Assembly (NCBI GenBank): GCA_002395805.1
Contig: DGVB01000040.1
Location: forward strand, 1 to 6,645
DNA length: 6,645 nucleotides
Direction: 5' to 3'
Origin: Bacteroidales bacterium UBA4295
GTDB lineage: Bacteria > Bacteroidota > Bacteroidia > Bacteroidales > Paludibacteraceae
The notes under the pieces were generated by a model. That model did not search any database. It had not been told where the DNA came from and worked only from the letters and a program-made list of their open reading frames with translations. The first letter of the stretch is position 1, and each line of letters begins with the position of its first letter. Position numbers and translations under genes: made by a program. Below, piece after piece: positions 1,323 through 5,976 of the stretch.

Positions 1323-1338
1323 AGTATTCAGTATTCAG
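1323..1338. repeat. Intergenic heptamer tandem repeat (AGTATTC)
   Basis: Two perfect copies of AGTATTC plus two further bases fill the gap between the stop of the gene at 1340-2239 and the start of the gene at 1307. The period of 7 bp is the same as in the two unrelated repeats inside the neighbouring genes at 1414-1445 and 3046-3076. It is short, so chance cannot be excluded on its own. Confidence 0.55.
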
Positions 1339-1339
1339 C

Positions 1340-2239
1340 TTATTTCACCTCCGCGCCTAAAGCATTATAGGTCTTCCCGTTGCGCTCAATAATCAACTGA
1401 CCGTTTTTAATAAGCTTTTGGCTGTTGGCTTTTGGCTGTTGGCTAACCTCTTCTATTCCTTCGTTCGGGTCCGGCAACTCTTCGATATTCAGCATTTTCC
1501 ATCCTTCGGCAGCACGATAAGCCGGCCCACTGCCATAAGGTACGCGTAGCGTAATGACTTCCGGAACGGAAATGCCGGAAAAAGCAGAAGCGTAAATACT
1601 TTGAGGTGTCTCTGCATAATTGAAAATCAAACTCAATGCGTAATCATGTGCAAAACAATGATCACCAATGTATGGGCAACTCGACGGAAGAACCACGCTG
1701 GTTAGCGCATCACAATACCGAAATGCTCCAAAATCGATGGTTTCTACTTTATCCGGTATGCGAATGGATGTTAATGCTTTACAACCATGGAAGCACTCTA
1801 CTCCGATAGTTTGTAAATTCTCCGGTAATGTAATCTGGGTTAAATTTGTGCAGTACAGCATGGCATCTCTGCCTAATGTGGTTAATGTGGAAGATAAATA
1901 GATATCATACACGTTCATGTATTCGAAAGCGGATTTTCCTATAGTGGTGATAGCAGCGTCTCGCAGATCGATAGTTGTTATTGCTTTGTTATACCGAAAC
2001 GCACTATCTCCTATCGCTACGACCTTAAAATTGGTCAAGTCCCCACGAACGGTAGCGGGGATAACAACCCGGCCGCTGAGGTTCTTATAGTTATCGGCTG
2101 CTACTTTGGACTCGTAGGTCACAGTAGCCGTTTCGTCGCTCCAATTGACGTTGTAGCATATGCCATCTACTTGTAGGTTCCAGGCATTCGCCATTATTGC
2201 GTAGCAGAGGGCTGCGAGGAAAAGAGTAAATTTTTTCAT
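1340..2239 (-). CDS. BspA-like leucine-rich repeat protein with short T9SS-like C-terminal tail
   Basis: The 299-aa product begins with a signal peptide (MKKFTLFLAALCYAIMANA, cleavage near residue 19). Residues 20-80 form the N-terminal DGICYNVN...TATVTY...VVIPATV segment found in its paralogues. About five TpLRR units follow (roughly 74-205; for example ITLPENLQTIGVECFHGC), then a cap with LRVPYGSGPAYRAAEGW (231-247). A linker at about 257-275 is partly encoded by a heptamer tandem repeat. The last 24 residues (276-299) carry the tail NGQLIIERNGKTYNALG followed by AEVK, which resembles the end of a T9SS type A sorting domain but is shorter than the usual 70-90 residues. Expected role: exported adhesin or scaffold, perhaps at the surface. 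The start is supported by the signal peptide, whose DNA matches the copies at 4525-4560 and 5895-5930. It is 78 bp downstream of the 217-aa gene. Ligand unknown; the T9SS assignment is inference. Confidence 0.92.
   Translation of the reverse strand: MKKFTLFLAALCYAIMANAWNLQVDGICYNVNWSDETATVTYESKVAADNYKNLSGRVVIPATVRGDLTNFKVVAIGDSAFRYNKAITTIDLRDAAITTIGKSAFEYMNVYDIYLSSTLTTLGRDAMLYCTNLTQITLPENLQTIGVECFHGCKALTSIRIPDKVETIDFGAFRYCDALTSVVLPSSCPYIGDHCFAHDYALSLIFNYAETPQSIYASAFSGISVPEVITLRVPYGSGPAYRAAEGWKMLNIEELPDPNEGIEEVSQQPKANSQKLIKNGQLIIERNGKTYNALGAEVK
1414..1445. repeat. Heptamer tandem repeat inside the linker of the 299-aa LRR gene
   Basis: On the plus strand the 14-bp unit TTTTGGCTGTTGGC occurs twice without mismatch (1416-1429 and 1430-1443), flanked by partial matches. 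Each 14-mer is two heptamers, TTTTGGC and TGTTGGC, differing by one base. It encodes residues 265-275 (VSQQPKANSQK) just before the C-terminal tail. Similar low-complexity words (KANSQK-like) are familiar from Bacteroidota proteins and intergenic regions; that statement is from memory, not a search. Confidence 0.85.
2204..2233 (-). repeat. Signal-peptide-coding DNA repeat, copy 3
   Basis: These 30 bases are identical to 4525-4554 and differ at one position from 5895-5924. They encode KFTLFLAALC-type signal-peptide residues. Identity extends to synonymous positions, although the mature parts of the three genes are strongly diverged. Confidence 0.85.
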
Positions 2240-2257
2240 AACATTTTTTAGTTTTAA

Positions 2258-2291
2258 AGCCTAACCCCAACCCTTCCCTGAAAGGAAGGGA
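2258..2291. repeat. Hairpin-bearing intergenic repeat-like sequence
   Basis: The 78-bp gap between the genes at 2318-2971 and 1340-2239 contains GCCTAACCCCAACCCTTCCC followed by a mirrored GGAAGGG. The arms CCCTTCC (2271-2277) and GGAAGGG (2284-2290) form a perfect 7-bp stem with a 6-nt loop. Sequences with the translation PNPSxKGRE are a well-known dispersed word in many Bacteroidota genomes, and this one reads PNPSLKGR on the plus strand. Neither strand has a T-tract after the stem, so it is not a standard intrinsic terminator. It could act as an mRNA stability or processing element between the two cistrons. Confidence 0.55.
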
Positions 2292-2317
2292 GAAGTATAT
2301 ATAGTTAACTTTATGAT

Positions 2318-2971
2318 TTACGGTTCGGGGACGATGCTGACGAGGCGGGCATAGCGTCCTTTGTGGTCGCAGATGACGCCGTACTCATTGACGGTTATCT
2401 CGCTCGGCGTCTCCAGAACCGAGCCGTTGAGTGTGAGGGTGTTAATCTCCGCGGCTTTGGGACTGCGGCTCACTTCCATGCGCAGCGCCCCGCCGTTGAC
2501 GACCACTTCGCCCGGACATTTGAGAGCAATCATCTCCATGTTCGGCGCATCGGAATAGAGCCGTACGGAGGTGAAGTAATCGTCTATCACCAGCTGCGGG
2601 CACTTGAGCGCCGTGGCAGAACCGTTGGAGACGATGGTCAGCGTGCTGTAGGTGGTGCTCTCGATCACAACCGGGTCTTTGGACACCACCGCCGCTTCCA
2701 TATAGACTCTGCCCGCCAGACGGATACGGAGCGGTGCGCCGGTATTGAAGGTCACGAAGCCTTCCGGCAAACGATAGTTGAAGCCGTCCCGCAGGATGAG
2801 CATGTTGTCCTCCGGGTCATAGAGCGCCATCTTGTCCCCGAAGATATCCAAGACGTCGTTAAACCTTGCCTTTACAGGCGTCTGGCCAAAGAAGATACCG
2901 CGCGGCACTTCCTGTGCCACGGACGAAATCCCGAGGCATAACAGCCATATTAACAAAATTTTCTTTTTCAT
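2318..2971 (-). CDS. Small secreted beta-rich protein, relative of the carbohydrate-binding-like domain of the 452-aa neighbour
   Basis: The 217-aa product has a signal peptide (about 1-19, ending SSVA before Q20). Its mature part is beta-strand rich with no catalytic motif that I recognise. It can be aligned by eye with the N-terminal domain of the 452-aa protein: NDVLDIFGDKMALYDPEDNM (38-57) against TDVLGDGKVSFDPATNTL, APLRIRLAG (79-87) against STLTIMLKG, GEVVVNGGALRM (154-165) against GKLIIDGATVYM, and SVLETPSEITVNEYGVI (184-200) against SAITSPSDAVVVSDGRI. It is therefore probably a diverged stand-alone copy of that domain. Unlike its neighbours it lacks the NGQLxIERNG tail and stops at VPEP. 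Its ATG overlaps the TGA of the upstream gene by 4 bp (ATGA), so translation is probably coupled. Sampled stretches are about 60% G+C against about 40-50% in the 299-aa LRR gene. Function unknown. Confidence 0.88.
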   Translation of the reverse strand: MKKKILLIWLLCLGISSVAQEVPRGIFFGQTPVKARFNDVLDIFGDKMALYDPEDNMLILRDGFNYRLPEGFVTFNTGAPLRIRLAGRVYMEAAVVSKDPVVIESTTYSTLTIVSNGSATALKCPQLVIDDYFTSVRLYSDAPNMEMIALKCPGEVVVNGGALRMEVSRSPKAAEINTLTLNGSVLETPSEITVNEYGVICDHKGRYARLVSIVPEP

Positions 2972-4560
2972 TGTACCTCTGAGCCTAAAGCGTTATAAGT
3001 CCTGCCGTTGCGCTCGATGAAGAGTTGACCATTGCGGAGCACCTTATTCGTCATTCGTAATTCGTCATTCGTAATTTGATCAATGCCTTGTCCGATCGGG
3101 CGGAGACGGGCAGTATAGGTTTCGGGTCCGGAGACTTTGTCGAAATACTTGTCCCAGTCTTTGAACGTCATACCTTCCGGATAGACCGCACTGTTAGCCA
3201 CGGCATTCGCATATCCCTCAACGACCCAGTCTTCCGTGCCGTATTTCAGATCAACCGTAAAGACCGTTTCTCCGTTAATGACAAACGAAACGGGGTAGCT
3301 ATTCTGGTCGATATAATCATAAACGGCATTGTAGGTCTGGTTATCGGTCACCGCCGCGAGCGCAGGCTCCCAATACTTGAACTCCAGATCAGCAGGCATA
3401 TCCACCTGATCGAGGAAGATCTCAGCGAGGTATTCGACATCGGCTTTGGGCGAACCTTCGTTCAAGAGGAAGGATGCTTTGGGTACACCATTCACGGCAA
3501 ACTGGATCTTGCATTGCGTGACGGTGGCGGCGGGTTCGATTATGGCTTCGTAAGCATGTGAGACCGTTACGTCTGTAATCTCGGGATTCCAATGTTTGAA
3601 GACCATTCCTGCAGGAACTGCCATTTGCTGCTCGACGAGTCTGGCTTCTGCTTTGACGTCCGCTGCGGGTGTGCCATACTCCATAGATACCGAGTACGCC
3701 GTAGCGCCGTTAACGACAAAACGGATATCATAGTTCAGAGGTTTGACAGCGAAGTTTTTCCAAACGCTGTATGCTTTGTATGCCTCAAGGCTTTGGTTGG
3801 GAACAAGGAGCATGACATTGGGGCAATCCACATGATAGAAGACCTGTTGATTAACAGCCAGCGGTGAAGCGACACGGCAAACAATATATTTCAATGACAC
3901 ACACTCGGAAAAGGCCTCATTATCAATAAGTGCCACGGAAGCAGGTATAGTAAGCGAGTGCAAGGCGAGACATTCTTTGAAAGCCTCTTTGCCGACGAGC
4001 GCCACATTATCTGGCAGCACGATCGATTTCAACGACGGGCATTTGGCGAACGCCTGTTCACCGATAGAGATCAGAGCGGATGGCATAGTGAATGAAGCCA
4101 GAGAAGTGCAGTTATAGAGCATTTTGTCAGGAATAACCTCAAGACTATTGGCAAAAAGAGCATGTGTGAGTGCGGGATTGTTAGAGAAGGCGCCTTCTCC
4201 GATAGAGGTAACACTTGCAGGCACCTTAACCGAGTCCAACAAAAGACAAGCACTGAAGGCATTCGCACCGATAGATGTAATACCGTTCGAGATTGCGACG
4301 GAGGTTATTTTCTGGGCATTATGAAACGCCTCGTCTTCGATACCCGTGACGCTATAGGTCTGCCCGCTGATTACAAAGTTAGCAGGGATGATGATTTTGC
4401 CCTCCAGCGTACTATAATTGTCGAAAAACGGCGATTTTATAACGGTAGCCGTTTTGTCGAACAGATCGACATCATAGTAAATACCATCGATAATCATTAC
4501 AGCGGCATTGGCCGTGATTGCGCAGCAGAGGGCTGCGAGGAAAAGAGTAAATTTACGCAT
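2968..4560 (-). CDS. BspA-like leucine-rich repeat protein with three tandem beta-grasp-like repeats and short C-terminal tail
   Basis: The 530-aa product starts with a signal peptide (MRKFTLFLAALCCAITANA). Residues 21-75 hold the DGIYYDVD...TATV...IIIPANF segment, and about 76-270 hold TpLRR units (for example VKVPASVTSIGEGAF and LTIPASVALIDNEAF) ending in the cap LLVPNQSLEAYKAYSVW. Three tandem domains follow at about 277-341, 350-413 and 422-487. Each runs VxFxxNG......YGTP or similar, then a PxGMxFKxW motif and a closing Y.A; this resembles InlB B-repeat (Listeria-Bacteroides repeat, Flg_new) domains. A linker (488-505) partly made of a heptamer repeat leads to the tail NGQLFIERNGRTYNALG (510-526) plus SEVQ. 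It is likely an exported multidomain adhesin in which the repeats act as stalk or spacer. It starts 11 bp after the upstream stop, and its TGA overlaps the next ATG. Ligand unknown. Confidence 0.93.
   Translation of the reverse strand: MRKFTLFLAALCCAITANAAVMIIDGIYYDVDLFDKTATVIKSPFFDNYSTLEGKIIIPANFVISGQTYSVTGIEDEAFHNAQKITSVAISNGITSIGANAFSACLLLDSVKVPASVTSIGEGAFSNNPALTHALFANSLEVIPDKMLYNCTSLASFTMPSALISIGEQAFAKCPSLKSIVLPDNVALVGKEAFKECLALHSLTIPASVALIDNEAFSECVSLKYIVCRVASPLAVNQQVFYHVDCPNVMLLVPNQSLEAYKAYSVWKNFAVKPLNYDIRFVVNGATAYSVSMEYGTPAADVKAEARLVEQQMAVPAGMVFKHWNPEITDVTVSHAYEAIIEPAATVTQCKIQFAVNGVPKASFLLNEGSPKADVEYLAEIFLDQVDMPADLEFKYWEPALAAVTDNQTYNAVYDYIDQNSYPVSFVINGETVFTVDLKYGTEDWVVEGYANAVANSAVYPEGMTFKDWDKYFDKVSGPETYTARLRPIGQGIDQITNDELRMTNKVLRNGQLFIERNGRTYNALGSEVQ
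3046..3076. repeat. Heptamer tandem repeat inside the linker of the 530-aa LRR gene
   Basis: Four heptamers alternate on the plus strand, ATTCGTC, ATTCGTA, ATTCGTC, ATTCGTA, followed by ATT. This is two perfect copies of a 14-bp unit. It encodes residues 495-505 (QITNDELRMTN), directly before the C-terminal tail. Sequence is unrelated to the repeat at 1414-1445, but unit size, copy number and position in the protein are the same. NYELRITN-type words of this kind recur in Bacteroidota genomes (from memory). Confidence 0.85.
4525..4560 (-). repeat. Signal-peptide-coding DNA repeat, copy 2
   Basis: These 36 bases, ending at the ATG, match 5895-5930 with one mismatch, and the first 30 match 2204-2233 exactly. 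The repeat covers the first 12 codons (MRKFTLFLAALC). Confidence 0.88.
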
Positions 4561-4573
4561 AATTGTATTGTTT
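4561..4573 (-). promoter_or_regulatory. A/T-rich translation leader of the 530-aa gene
   Basis: The 13 bases AAACAATACAATT before the ATG at 4560 are identical to those before the ATG at 1307. Here the leader overlaps the TAA stop of the upstream gene (4574-4572), so the two cistrons are almost touching and no separate promoter is likely. Confidence 0.5.
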
Positions 4574-5930
4574 ATTTAAGTTCATTCCCTTGTGCATTAT
4601 AAGTTTTCCCGTTCCGCTCGATGAGCAACTGACCGTCTTTGATGACTTTATGTGCTTTTTCACCGGTTCCGATAGCATTAATGTCCTGCGATTGCTTCAC
4701 GGCATTAGCAGTCACTTCTTGTGAGTCGGGACTAAAAGTAAAACTAATGTCATATGTGGCATTTTCAGGGATGTCGAGGGTCGCGTTTTCCGTCGGCCAG
4801 CATGTATTCCAATGACGATTCAATACCACTTTATACTCAACGGTACCGGCAGGAACATATACTCCTTCTTTATGTAACTGATAAACCCTTCCGTCGAAAT
4901 CCATGTCGTTTGCTTTAAGCGAAAGGTCCCATTCCCCGCCAAAGATTGCTACTGAACTACCGGCAACGGTATAAATGAATGCTTCTTCAAACCGGCCGTA
5001 GATAAGGGTGGTGTTCTCGGTCATCAGTTGATGGTTTGAGTATGGGTTTTCGGTGCTGAGCAGTTGGTTATTCTTGTCATACCAACCGGTGAAGGCATAA
5101 CCTTCCGCAGGCGTGGCAGTGAGATTGATATAATCGGCAAGCTCAATCCAGGCATAAGCTTGGCTTTCCGTTAACGGATTATCGTTTACCCTCACTTTGT
5201 TCCCTACGTTCTTCGGCGTTGCGCCATATATCAGTCTGCGCAGGTTAGAAGAGATGACAACCTGAGTGGTTTTGCTGTACTCCGAAGACGTTCCTGACCG
5301 CATGATTCGTCCGTCAGAAACGACCACTGCATCCGAAGGCGAGGTGATGGCACTGCGAGCGATGACTGTTCCGCCGGTACGAATACGGCAAGGCATCATA
5401 TAAACGGTAGCGCCATCAATAATCAGTTTTCCGCCTGATTGCGAATAGATAGTTCCGGCTCCGTTGCCGGCTCCCTGCAGATTGACACTTATCGGATTTT
5501 CAATGAAGATATCATCGGAGTACGACCAGATAGCCGGTGCCCCGTCTGTACCGGAAGTTACGATTTTCAGTTCCGCTATAGAAGAAGGATTTTCTTCTGA
5601 TGTAATCAGCAGCCGCCCCATCGTATGGATAGCGCCGGTATAATCCGGGACACCGGACATAGCGATGTAATTGTTTGTGCCTTTGAGCATAATCGTCAAT
5701 GTCGAGGCGAAATCCGACCATATAATCGCGCTGTTGCCGGTAGTCTCGATGGTGGCGTTGTTGAGCGTGAGCGTGTTGGTGGCAGGGTCAAAACTAACTT
5801 TGCCGTCACCCAGCACATCGGTTTTGTTAACGTCCGTTACAGTAGTGCCTGCAACAGTCAGGCTATAGTTAACGGCGTTCATCATTGCGCAGCAGCAGAT
5901 GGCTGCGAGGAAAAGAGTAAATTTACGCAT
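4572..5930 (-). CDS. Secreted multidomain carbohydrate-binding-like protein with short C-terminal tail
   Basis: The 452-aa product has a signal peptide (MRKFTLFLAAICCCAMMNA). Residues about 22-228 form a beta-rich, possibly beta-helical domain with the hallmark VTDVNKTDVLGDGKVSFDP and then TNTLTLNNATI; domains with this motif are usually annotated as carbohydrate-binding in Bacteroidota, though not well characterised. Residues about 243-315 resemble a bacterial beta-grasp repeat (LTATPAEGYAFTGWYD...TTLIYGRF). Residues about 318-411 look like a starch-binding or pullulanase-associated immunoglobulin-like module: YTVAGSSVAIFGGEWDLSLK, then DGRVYQL, VPAGTVEYKVVLNRHW, and ATYDISFTFSPDSQEVTANA. 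The end carries the tail DGQLLIERNGKTYNAQG plus NELK. No catalytic residues are visible, so glycan binding rather than hydrolysis is suggested. It is first in the operon, with a promoter at 6003-6034. The shared signal-peptide DNA supports this start. Confidence 0.92.
   Translation of the reverse strand: MRKFTLFLAAICCCAMMNAVNYSLTVAGTTVTDVNKTDVLGDGKVSFDPATNTLTLNNATIETTGNSAIIWSDFASTLTIMLKGTNNYIAMSGVPDYTGAIHTMGRLLITSEENPSSIAELKIVTSGTDGAPAIWSYSDDIFIENPISVNLQGAGNGAGTIYSQSGGKLIIDGATVYMMPCRIRTGGTVIARSAITSPSDAVVVSDGRIMRSGTSSEYSKTTQVVISSNLRRLIYGATPKNVGNKVRVNDNPLTESQAYAWIELADYINLTATPAEGYAFTGWYDKNNQLLSTENPYSNHQLMTENTTLIYGRFEEAFIYTVAGSSVAIFGGEWDLSLKANDMDFDGRVYQLHKEGVYVPAGTVEYKVVLNRHWNTCWPTENATLDIPENATYDISFTFSPDSQEVTANAVKQSQDINAIGTGEKAHKVIKDGQLLIERNGKTYNAQGNELK
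5895..5930 (-). repeat. Signal-peptide-coding DNA repeat, copy 1
   Basis: One mismatch in 36 bases against 4525-4560. It encodes MRKFTLFLAAIC at the start of the first operon gene. Confidence 0.88.
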
Positions 5931-5935
5931 GTTTT

Positions 5936-5955
5936 TAATGATTATTAATGATTAT
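5936..5955. repeat. 10-bp tandem repeat in the leader of the first operon gene
   Basis: TAATGATTAT occurs twice in perfect tandem (5936-5945, 5946-5955), ending five bases before the ATG at 5930 as read on the minus strand. It gives an A/T-rich leader that probably keeps the initiation region unstructured. Confidence 0.6.
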
Positions 5956-5976
5956 TTTGAGTGGACATAAAGGCAT

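What the first reader, a model, noticed from the sequence alone, without database searches (positions are those of the whole stretch)
1414..3076. Two unrelated heptamer repeats of identical design occupy the same linker in two paralogues
The repeats at 1416-1443 (TTTTGGCTGTTGGC twice) and 3046-3073 (ATTCGTCATTCGTA twice) have no sequence in common. Both are four heptamers arranged as two copies of a 14-bp unit whose halves differ by one base. Both encode the 10-11 residues just before the tail NGQLxIERNG. The third tailed paralogue has a non-repeat linker there (about 413-427). This suggests that a family of heptamer elements settles in, or is tolerated at, this junction. Heptanucleotide tandem repeats (STRR) are described in heterocystous cyanobacteria; a comparable system tied to a protein-sorting junction in Bacteroidota would be noteworthy.
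Basis: partly seen in the sequence, partly recalled or inferred. Interest (0 to 1): 0.72.

Follow-up and report, generated by a model that had tools for sequence, protein, structure and literature searches.

The report
Seven-base repeats filling protein linkers
In a likely gut Bacteroidales bacterium and its relatives, seven-base DNA repeats with many unrelated sequences sit inside genes in frame, both just before a conserved protein tail and in predicted loops of ordinary enzymes, likely because those spots tolerate extra residues.

Summary
In detail: two unrelated four-unit heptamer arrays occupy the same linker before the tail K..NGQLxIERNG..YNALG. It is not confined to this window. Of 172 tails, 18 linkers (10 of 60 here, 8 of 112 in relatives) carry a period-7 array, against 2 of 681 coding windows upstream in the same genes, and the spike sits at the tail's first codon. 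So the positional link is not coincidence. Nor is it special to the tail. Heptamer arrays are spread through this genome (80 in 651 kb; period 11 has 19, periods 2-6 and 8-10 at most 8), in 34 word classes where about 71 are expected at random. They also lie in frame in conserved enzymes: 22 of 137 scored loops in 69 KdsD-type orthologues, with at least 16 and 14 changes of insert state on the tree. Palindromic repeats use the same spots. The junction is best read as one insertion-tolerant site among many; how arrays are written or spread is inferred. Known neighbours are cyanobacterial and Beggiatoaceae heptamers and Rickettsia palindromic elements; repeated in-frame entry of a non-triplet microsatellite into enzyme loops is a new variant.

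The parts
1414..1444 (-). Heptamer array AGCCAAC/AGCCAAA, about 4.4 units (2.2 units of 14), coding SQQPKANSQKL in the linker of LRR protein 1
   Evidence: TRF; translation
3046..3076 (-). Heptamer array GAATTAC/GAATGAC, about 4.4 units (2.2 units of 14), coding QITNDELRMTN in the linker of LRR protein 2; the identical array precedes two other tails in this genome
   Evidence: TRF
1323..1338 (.). Short heptamer run AGTATTC x2.3 directly after the stop of ORF 1340-2239
   Evidence: TRF
1343..1420 (-). C-terminal tail QKLIKNGQLIIERNGKTYNALGAEVK
2974..3045 (-). C-terminal tail KVLRNGQLFIERNGRTYNALGSEV
4575..4649 (-). C-terminal tail KVIKDGQLLIERNGKTYNAQGNELK of the third paralogue
4650..4691 (-). 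Non-repeat linker of the third paralogue (SQDINAIGTGEKAH)
1340..2239 (-). BspA-type LRR protein 1 (299 aa)
   Evidence: PF13306
2968..4560 (-). BspA-type LRR protein 2 (530 aa)
   Evidence: PF13306
4572..5930 (-). Third tailed protein (452 aa), with PF22058 (X25) and PF18998 (InlB B-repeat-like) matches
2271..2290 (.). Palindromic repeat CCCTTCCCTGAAAGGAAGGG in the gap between genes; similar sequences are read in other tail linkers and in KdsD loops of relatives

Best explanation
The two repeats belong to a genome-wide population of period-7 tandem arrays with many different words that also lie in frame inside genes, at points predicted to tolerate extra residues, of which the linker before the C-terminal tail is one. 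Shown here: the period-7 excess in this genome, the restricted word vocabulary, the spike at the tail junction in this genome and four relatives, and species-specific in-frame inserts at two fixed stretches of a KdsD-type enzyme and in several stretches of a FAD protein. Inferred: arrays are copied into new sites from other arrays of the same genome (recombination or template switching) and resized by slippage; most coding insertions are removed by selection, and those left are stop-free on the sense strand and keep the net length a multiple of three. Because 7 is not a multiple of 3, an array of three or more units is read in all three phases, so a strand without stop triplets is open whatever the frame of entry, and resizing keeps the frame in steps of three units (21 nt). 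Four units, as in both window arrays, is one unit plus three; that this explains their shared design is an inference.
For: Period 7: 80 arrays in 651 kb. 34 word classes against a mean of 71 (minimum 61 in 500 simulations) for random words (copies inside larger repeats add to the sharing). 18/172 linkers against 2/681 upstream coding windows; 0-1 hits at every offset from -660 to -99, 14 and 17 of 172 at -66 and -33, 1 in the tail. Array density 0.81 per kb between genes and 0.056 per kb in coding DNA (gene calls are crude). KdsD orthologues: loop 1 has an insert in 26/69 (10 heptamer), loop 2 in 21/68 (12 heptamer); other periods 0-1; at least 16 and 14 state changes. One pair with 98.6% identical cores differs by 12 residues in loop 1. 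FAD orthologues: 9 arrays in 7 of 21 sequences, in four regions inside the protein and one before the probable start; 10-residue gap against PDB 3nlc. Two KdsD loop pairs, picked by eye, differ by exactly 7 residues, i.e. three units (L219/L269 loop 1, L295/L267 loop 2). AlphaFold model of the own KdsD (mean pLDDT 82, pTM 0.60): loop 1 insert at the tip of a beta-hairpin (strands 232-241 and 246-256), loop 2 in a coil stretch, both with block pLDDT 62-64.
Against: No insertion was caught in the act; one genome per species is held, so donor and enzyme are unknown. Period 7 does not dominate everywhere: in four of ten sampled same-genus genomes period 11 equals or exceeds it, and two (G011, G012) gave no period-7 array in 40 kb each; in 69 KdsD flanks period 9 has 68 and period 11 has 45 arrays against 78 for period 7. 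The 11-nt arrays of this genome are mostly between genes (2 of 19 genic against 33 of 80 for period 7, p = 0.015), which tolerance of any repeat does not explain. Not every genic array is a clean insertion: in the SDR protein the array faces only a 2-residue gap in the best PDB match, and 12 of 32 genic arrays lie in the first 25 codons of crude gene calls, where the true start is uncertain. Length clustering of coding arrays is weak (25-35 nt: 18/21 against 29/47, p = 0.054). Sites were judged tolerant partly because inserts are there.
Confidence: 0.75

Rival explanations
1. The arrays are part of a tail-spreading module: repeats before the tail (and after the stop) serve as homology for recombination that moves the tail onto new proteins.
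For: Array ends lie at -6 to +5 of the tail's first K codon in 17 of 18 linkers (the scanned window ended at +6), and arrays also lie past the stop. The identical ATTCGTC/ATTCGTA array precedes three tails; C38:60 and C38:903 share the 3' flank shown but carry different heptamers.
Against: The same kind of array lies in KdsD and FAD orthologues that have no such tail, at a rate not shown to be lower in KdsD (p = 0.17). A G-I-E or A-I-D motif lies upstream of array linkers and of plain linkers alike, so the array sits inside the module, not at its edge.
Confidence: 0.12
2. Purely local replication slippage: chance short repeats in relaxed positions grow by 7-nt steps with no copying between sites.
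For: Prevalence of 7-nt units was attributed to polymerase slippage by Mrazek et al. 2007, as summarised in PMC4679880. Two KdsD loop pairs differ by three units.
Against: 80 arrays share 34 word classes where 71 are expected; the words seen in relatives' samples differ from genome to genome; L220 has a 12-residue insert where its 98.6% identical relative L221 has none.
Confidence: 0.15
3. Phase-variation switches: gain or loss of one unit shifts the frame and cuts off the tail, turning surface display on and off.
For: The unit is not a multiple of three and the window proteins look like surface LRR proteins.
Against: Arrays are short and partly degenerate, and also occur in KdsD and FAD enzymes, which are not surface proteins; the two resized pairs that I compared differ by three units. 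Frame-shifted versions were not looked for, since tails were found by open frames.
Confidence: 0.08
4. Chance or assembly artefact.
For: The genome is a 60.8% complete draft in 40 contigs.
Against: Records from several independent MAG studies carry such inserts; other-period and other-position controls in the linkers and loops are near zero.
Confidence: 0.02

Closest known systems
   Same: 7-nt direct repeats, mostly between genes, dispersed; the TAACTGA class (AACTGAT) is one of the 34 classes here; that paper also finds sets in or overlapping ORFs of 25 putative proteins and suggests that entry into coding DNA may be tolerated between modules or at protein ends.
   Different: Here many unrelated words coexist in one genome, and arrays recur in frame at fixed loops of conserved enzymes and in tail linkers.
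Rickettsia palindromic elements (review PMC10969869, passages read)
   Same: Repeats inserted in frame into unrelated protein genes.
   Different: RPEs are about 150 bp and palindromic, with conserved peptides; these are direct repeats of about 20-50 nt with variable words. The palindromic CCTCCCT-type inserts at the same sites are closer to RPEs.
Tandem repeats of Borg elements (PMC9879509, passages read)
   Same: Tandem repeats inside ORFs of one lineage, evolving fast.
   Different: Borg ORF repeats have unit lengths divisible by three; here the unit is 7.
Long simple sequence repeats with 7-nt units (Mrazek et al. 2007, known only through PMC4679880)
   Same: 7-nt units are abundant.
   Different: That survey found units divisible by three to be the likeliest in coding regions.

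Membership tests
Heptanucleotide tandem repeats (broad kind) | Tandem units of 7 nt in excess over other periods | tested here: met
   This genome: 80 against 0-8 for periods 2-6, 8-10, 12, 13; 19 for period 11. In several relatives period 9 or 11 comes close or leads
Heptanucleotide tandem repeats (broad kind) | Mostly between genes | tested here: met
   47 of 80 between genes, which are about 9% of the bases sampled
Cyanobacterial STRR proper | Their particular words and hosts | not tested
   Words known only by recall; no cyanobacterial genome was compared
TAACTGA repeats | The word TAACTGA | tested here: not met
   Neither window array has this word; one of 80 arrays in the genome sample falls in its class
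Rickettsia palindromic elements | About 150 bp palindromic element with conserved peptide | tested here: not met
   Window arrays are 31-nt direct repeats with unrelated peptides
Rickettsia palindromic elements | In-frame insertion in unrelated genes | tested here: met
   not a clean insertion in the SDR protein
Borg-type amino-acid tandem repeats | Unit divisible by three | tested here: not met
   Unit 7
Type IX secretion C-terminal domain (tail) | Match to Por_Secre_tail or an NCBIfam model | tested here: not met
   No NCBIfam match; in Pfam only a sub-threshold chance match to Phospholamban (E 0.17) for one tail. Profile comparison with C-termini from 7 CTD loci, at least one mis-extracted, was weak
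Type IX secretion C-terminal domain (tail) | Host has the secretion system | tested here: met
   SprA_N in 24 of 25 genomes, own included; Por_Secre_tail in 25 of 25

The most novel reading that the evidence does not exclude
These bacteria have an active, heptamer-specific DNA-writing process with a genome-specific word list that keeps inserting arrays of about four units; because such arrays are open in every frame, it supplies a steady stream of ready-made linker peptides to enzymes, signal peptides and surface-protein tails, and loops are rewritten between sister species.
Probability: 0.15. Interest if true: 0.9.

Novelty: new variant of a known kind. Interest (0 to 1): 0.68.

Why it matters
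A repeat whose unit is not a multiple of three is not expected in coding DNA, yet here it repeatedly supplies loops and linkers of conserved proteins. That gives a natural series of insert changes at fixed loops of one enzyme, useful for studying how new protein segments arise, and a lineage in which the question why 7-nt units are so common in bacterial tandem repeats can be tested. It also warns annotators that many species-specific loops in these genomes are translated repeats.

Tried and rejected
Tail as known domain: no NCBIfam match, only a chance sub-threshold Pfam match, and a weak local profile match (YNAQG against YDMQG), so no membership is claimed. Palindromes as a second enriched linker class: with stems of 7 or more, 4/172 linkers against 5/681 controls, though 30/170 after stops; that several linkers resemble the CCTCCCT element rests on reading, not on a count. 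Heptamers as hydrophobic signal-peptide cores: several examples but no significant trend (p = 0.15; gene starts are uncertain). One-substitution network of words: 35 edges against a random mean of 26 and maximum of 41, not unusual. Length clustering: p = 0.054. A compound element (heptamers, core GCATTAATCGTTTGAGCG..CGAAATAA, heptamers) was seen six times but does not account for the other words. Loop extraction by regular expression overran, lost rows (59 of 90 usable, 51 distinct) and was redone (90 given; 9 duplicates and 12 failures dropped, all 12 among the last 16 loci listed). still misreads L323, whose loop-1 heptamer insert came out empty, so its count of 10 is low by at least one. 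Of the 172 tails, one (L184, 6293) has a stop 20 codons upstream and was kept.

Literature: eight searches (on repeats; 57 on sorting tails) listed no paper that by title or abstract describes in-frame heptamer arrays at protein loops or tail linkers in Bacteroidales; three listings were capped and the library holds open-licence papers only. Three papers were seen in passages.
Full report
What is in the window. The window is a whole 6,645-bp contig of a 1.50-Mb, 60.8% complete genome in 40 contigs. It holds five minus-strand genes, one cut by the contig end, and the start of a plus-strand gene. They encode SQQPKANSQKL and QITNDELRMTN, at the tail's first lysine. A third short heptamer run follows a stop codon at 1323-1338.

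The genome is full of such arrays. In 40 stretches (651,371 bp, 43% of the assembly, chosen partly for tail genes) I counted 80 period-7 arrays at score 13; periods 2, 3, 5, 6, 10, 12 and 13 gave none, 4 gave 1, 8 gave 8, 9 gave 4, 11 gave 19, 14 gave 6 and 15 gave 6. The 80 arrays fall into 34 word classes, against a mean of 70.8 and a minimum of 61 in 500 simulations of random words with the arrays' base make-up. Some of that sharing comes from copied larger units (three identical linkers; six copies of a compound element). By a crude gene call, 47 are between genes and 33 in genes, 6 of these in tail linkers; densities are 0.81 and 0.056 per kb. Twelve of 32 scored genic arrays lie in the first 25 codons, where the start is uncertain.

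Relatives. Of ten same-genus genomes sampled (11 to 55 kb each), eight carry period-7 arrays with words mostly of their own; two (G011, G012) showed none in 40 kb each. In four (G002, G004, G006, G016) period 11 equals or exceeds period 7. Ten other members of the order gave 2 period-7 arrays in about 267 kb. In the flanks of 69 KdsD loci (463 kb) period 7 gave 78 arrays, period 9 68 and period 11 45. So other non-triplet repeats are also common in this group; those of this genome are mostly between genes (2 of 8 at period 8, 1 of 4 at 9 and 2 of 19 at 11 in genes).

The tail junction. A profile of 30 tails found 60 tails in the own stretches and 112 distinct ones in relatives' loci, after dropping weak, internal, short and duplicate hits (115 and 229 raw hits). 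The relatives' loci had been picked by similarity to the LRR protein or the tail or by contig start, not by repeats. In the window from -60 to +6 of the tail's first codon, 18 of 172 linkers score 9 or more at period 7: 10 of 60 own and 8 of 112 in relatives, the latter from G006, G007, G016 and G017. Other periods give at most 4, except 14 (14 linkers), which is two units. Four upstream coding windows of the same genes give 2 of 681, the tail itself 1 of 172 and the 66 bases after the stop 12 of 170. Sliding the window gives 0 or 1 at every offset from -660 to -99, then 14 and 17, then 1 in the tail, then 13 and 15 at +33 and +66. The 18 arrays are 16 distinct sequences; 17 of 18 end within -6 to +5 of the lysine codon, the scan ending at +6.

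The junction is not special. Heptamer arrays lie in frame inside genes of this genome that match a KdsD-type arabinose-5-phosphate isomerase, 3-dehydroquinate synthase, an SDR protein and a FAD protein, among others. The FAD array faces a 10-residue gap in PDB 3nlc; the SDR array faces only a 2-residue gap, so there it replaces rather than adds. For the isomerase I used 10 of the 22 same-genus loci and the best 80 of 439 loci, which are rumen and gut records named Paludibacteraceae or Bacteroidales for the most part, with two Prevotella-type records. Of these 90 loci, 69 distinct proteins were usable. Loop 1 of the CBS domain, natively about 5 residues in the stretch measured, has an insert in 26 of 69 (10 heptamer, 16 other); loop 2 in 21 of 68 (12 heptamer, 9 other). 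Periods other than 7 give 0 or 1. The fewest changes of insert state on the tree are 16 and 14 (gain and loss are not told apart). Words differ: EITNYELRITN here, AVSHQPSAVSN, KVQSDKVQSTNG and ENSQFSILNSQFSILNSQ elsewhere, with palindromic CCTCCCT-type inserts in others. L220 and L221, 98.6% identical in the core, differ by 12 residues in loop 1. FAD orthologues (21 of the loci) carry 9 arrays in 7 sequences, in four regions inside the protein and one before the probable start; other periods give 0-2, except 14 with 5. The rate in KdsD loops is not shown to differ from that in tail linkers (22/137 against 18/172, p = 0.17). A predicted model (mean pLDDT 82, pTM 0.60) puts loop 1 at the tip of a beta-hairpin and loop 2 in a coil stretch, both with lowered confidence.

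How it likely works. From the sequence alone: a period-7 array of three or more units is read in all three phases, so a strand without stop triplets is open in any frame; one unit more or less shifts the frame, three units (21 nt, 7 codons) do not. Two KdsD loop pairs, picked by eye, differ by exactly 7 residues. I infer that arrays are copied between sites of one genome and resized by slippage, and that selection leaves them in coding DNA only where extra residues do little harm and where the sense strand is stop-free. The copying step is the weakest: no donor, enzyme or within-species event was seen. Against simple tolerance of any repeat, 11-nt arrays are rarely genic (2 of 19 against 33 of 80, p = 0.015).

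What is known. PMC4679880 (passages) describes TAACTGA heptamers in Beggiatoaceae, Cyanobacteria and five Bacteroidetes, mostly between genes, with sets in or overlapping ORFs of 25 putative proteins, and reports Mrazek et al. 2007 on the abundance of 7-nt units and on units divisible by three being likeliest in coding DNA. PMC9879509 (passages) reports Borg repeats in ORFs whose units are divisible by three. PMC10969869 (passages) reviews Rickettsia palindromic elements inserted in frame. The present case shares features with each and is a member of none but the broad heptamer kind. The listings of eight literature searches, three of them capped, showed no description of it.

The tail. The genus has the type IX secretion protein SprA (24 of 25 genomes) and Por_Secre_tail domains (25 of 25), but the short tail has no NCBIfam match and no Pfam match above threshold, so its role as a sorting signal is likely at most.

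Noticed in passing
window 2271-2290: Palindromic element CCCTTCCCTGAAAGGAAGGG between genes; similar sequences follow the stop of other tail genes and are read in linkers (PTSDSSLKGRAN) and KdsD loops.
   Followed up: partly
L017 and L061 (C22:23301, 30654; C30:42398, 43056, 44528, 45859): Compound repeat: heptamers, core GCATTAATCGTTTGAGCG..CGAAATAA, heptamers again; a related core sits inside the KdsD heptamer array of L268.
   Followed up: partly
own stretches, such as C14:51744, C2:12470; KdsD flanks L267-L335: Separate families of 8-, 9- and 11-nt direct-repeat arrays, mostly between genes here; near KdsD, periods 9 and 11 are nearly as common as 7. In L268, 9-nt arrays appear in both orientations, as if forming a hairpin.
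   Followed up: partly
own C4:62834, C4:15998, C11:54452, C11:41226: Heptamer arrays encode hydrophobic stretches near protein starts (LSLFTFHLSLF, LSIFSFQFSIS, INHYSLFI), as if building signal peptides.
   Followed up: partly
L241-L264 (FAD protein): A further recurrent insert type with peptides like LSAERSVS and SEAVCQHSG in several species at more than one place.
   Followed up: no
window 2201-2265, 4522-4586, 5892-5956: The coding starts of three paralogues are alike (72-85% over 65 nt) while their bodies differ, as if gene starts are shared cassettes.
   Followed up: no
L010: C38:60-137 and C38:903-977: Two tails share the same 3' flank (60 nt shown) but carry different heptamer linkers.
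   Followed up: partly
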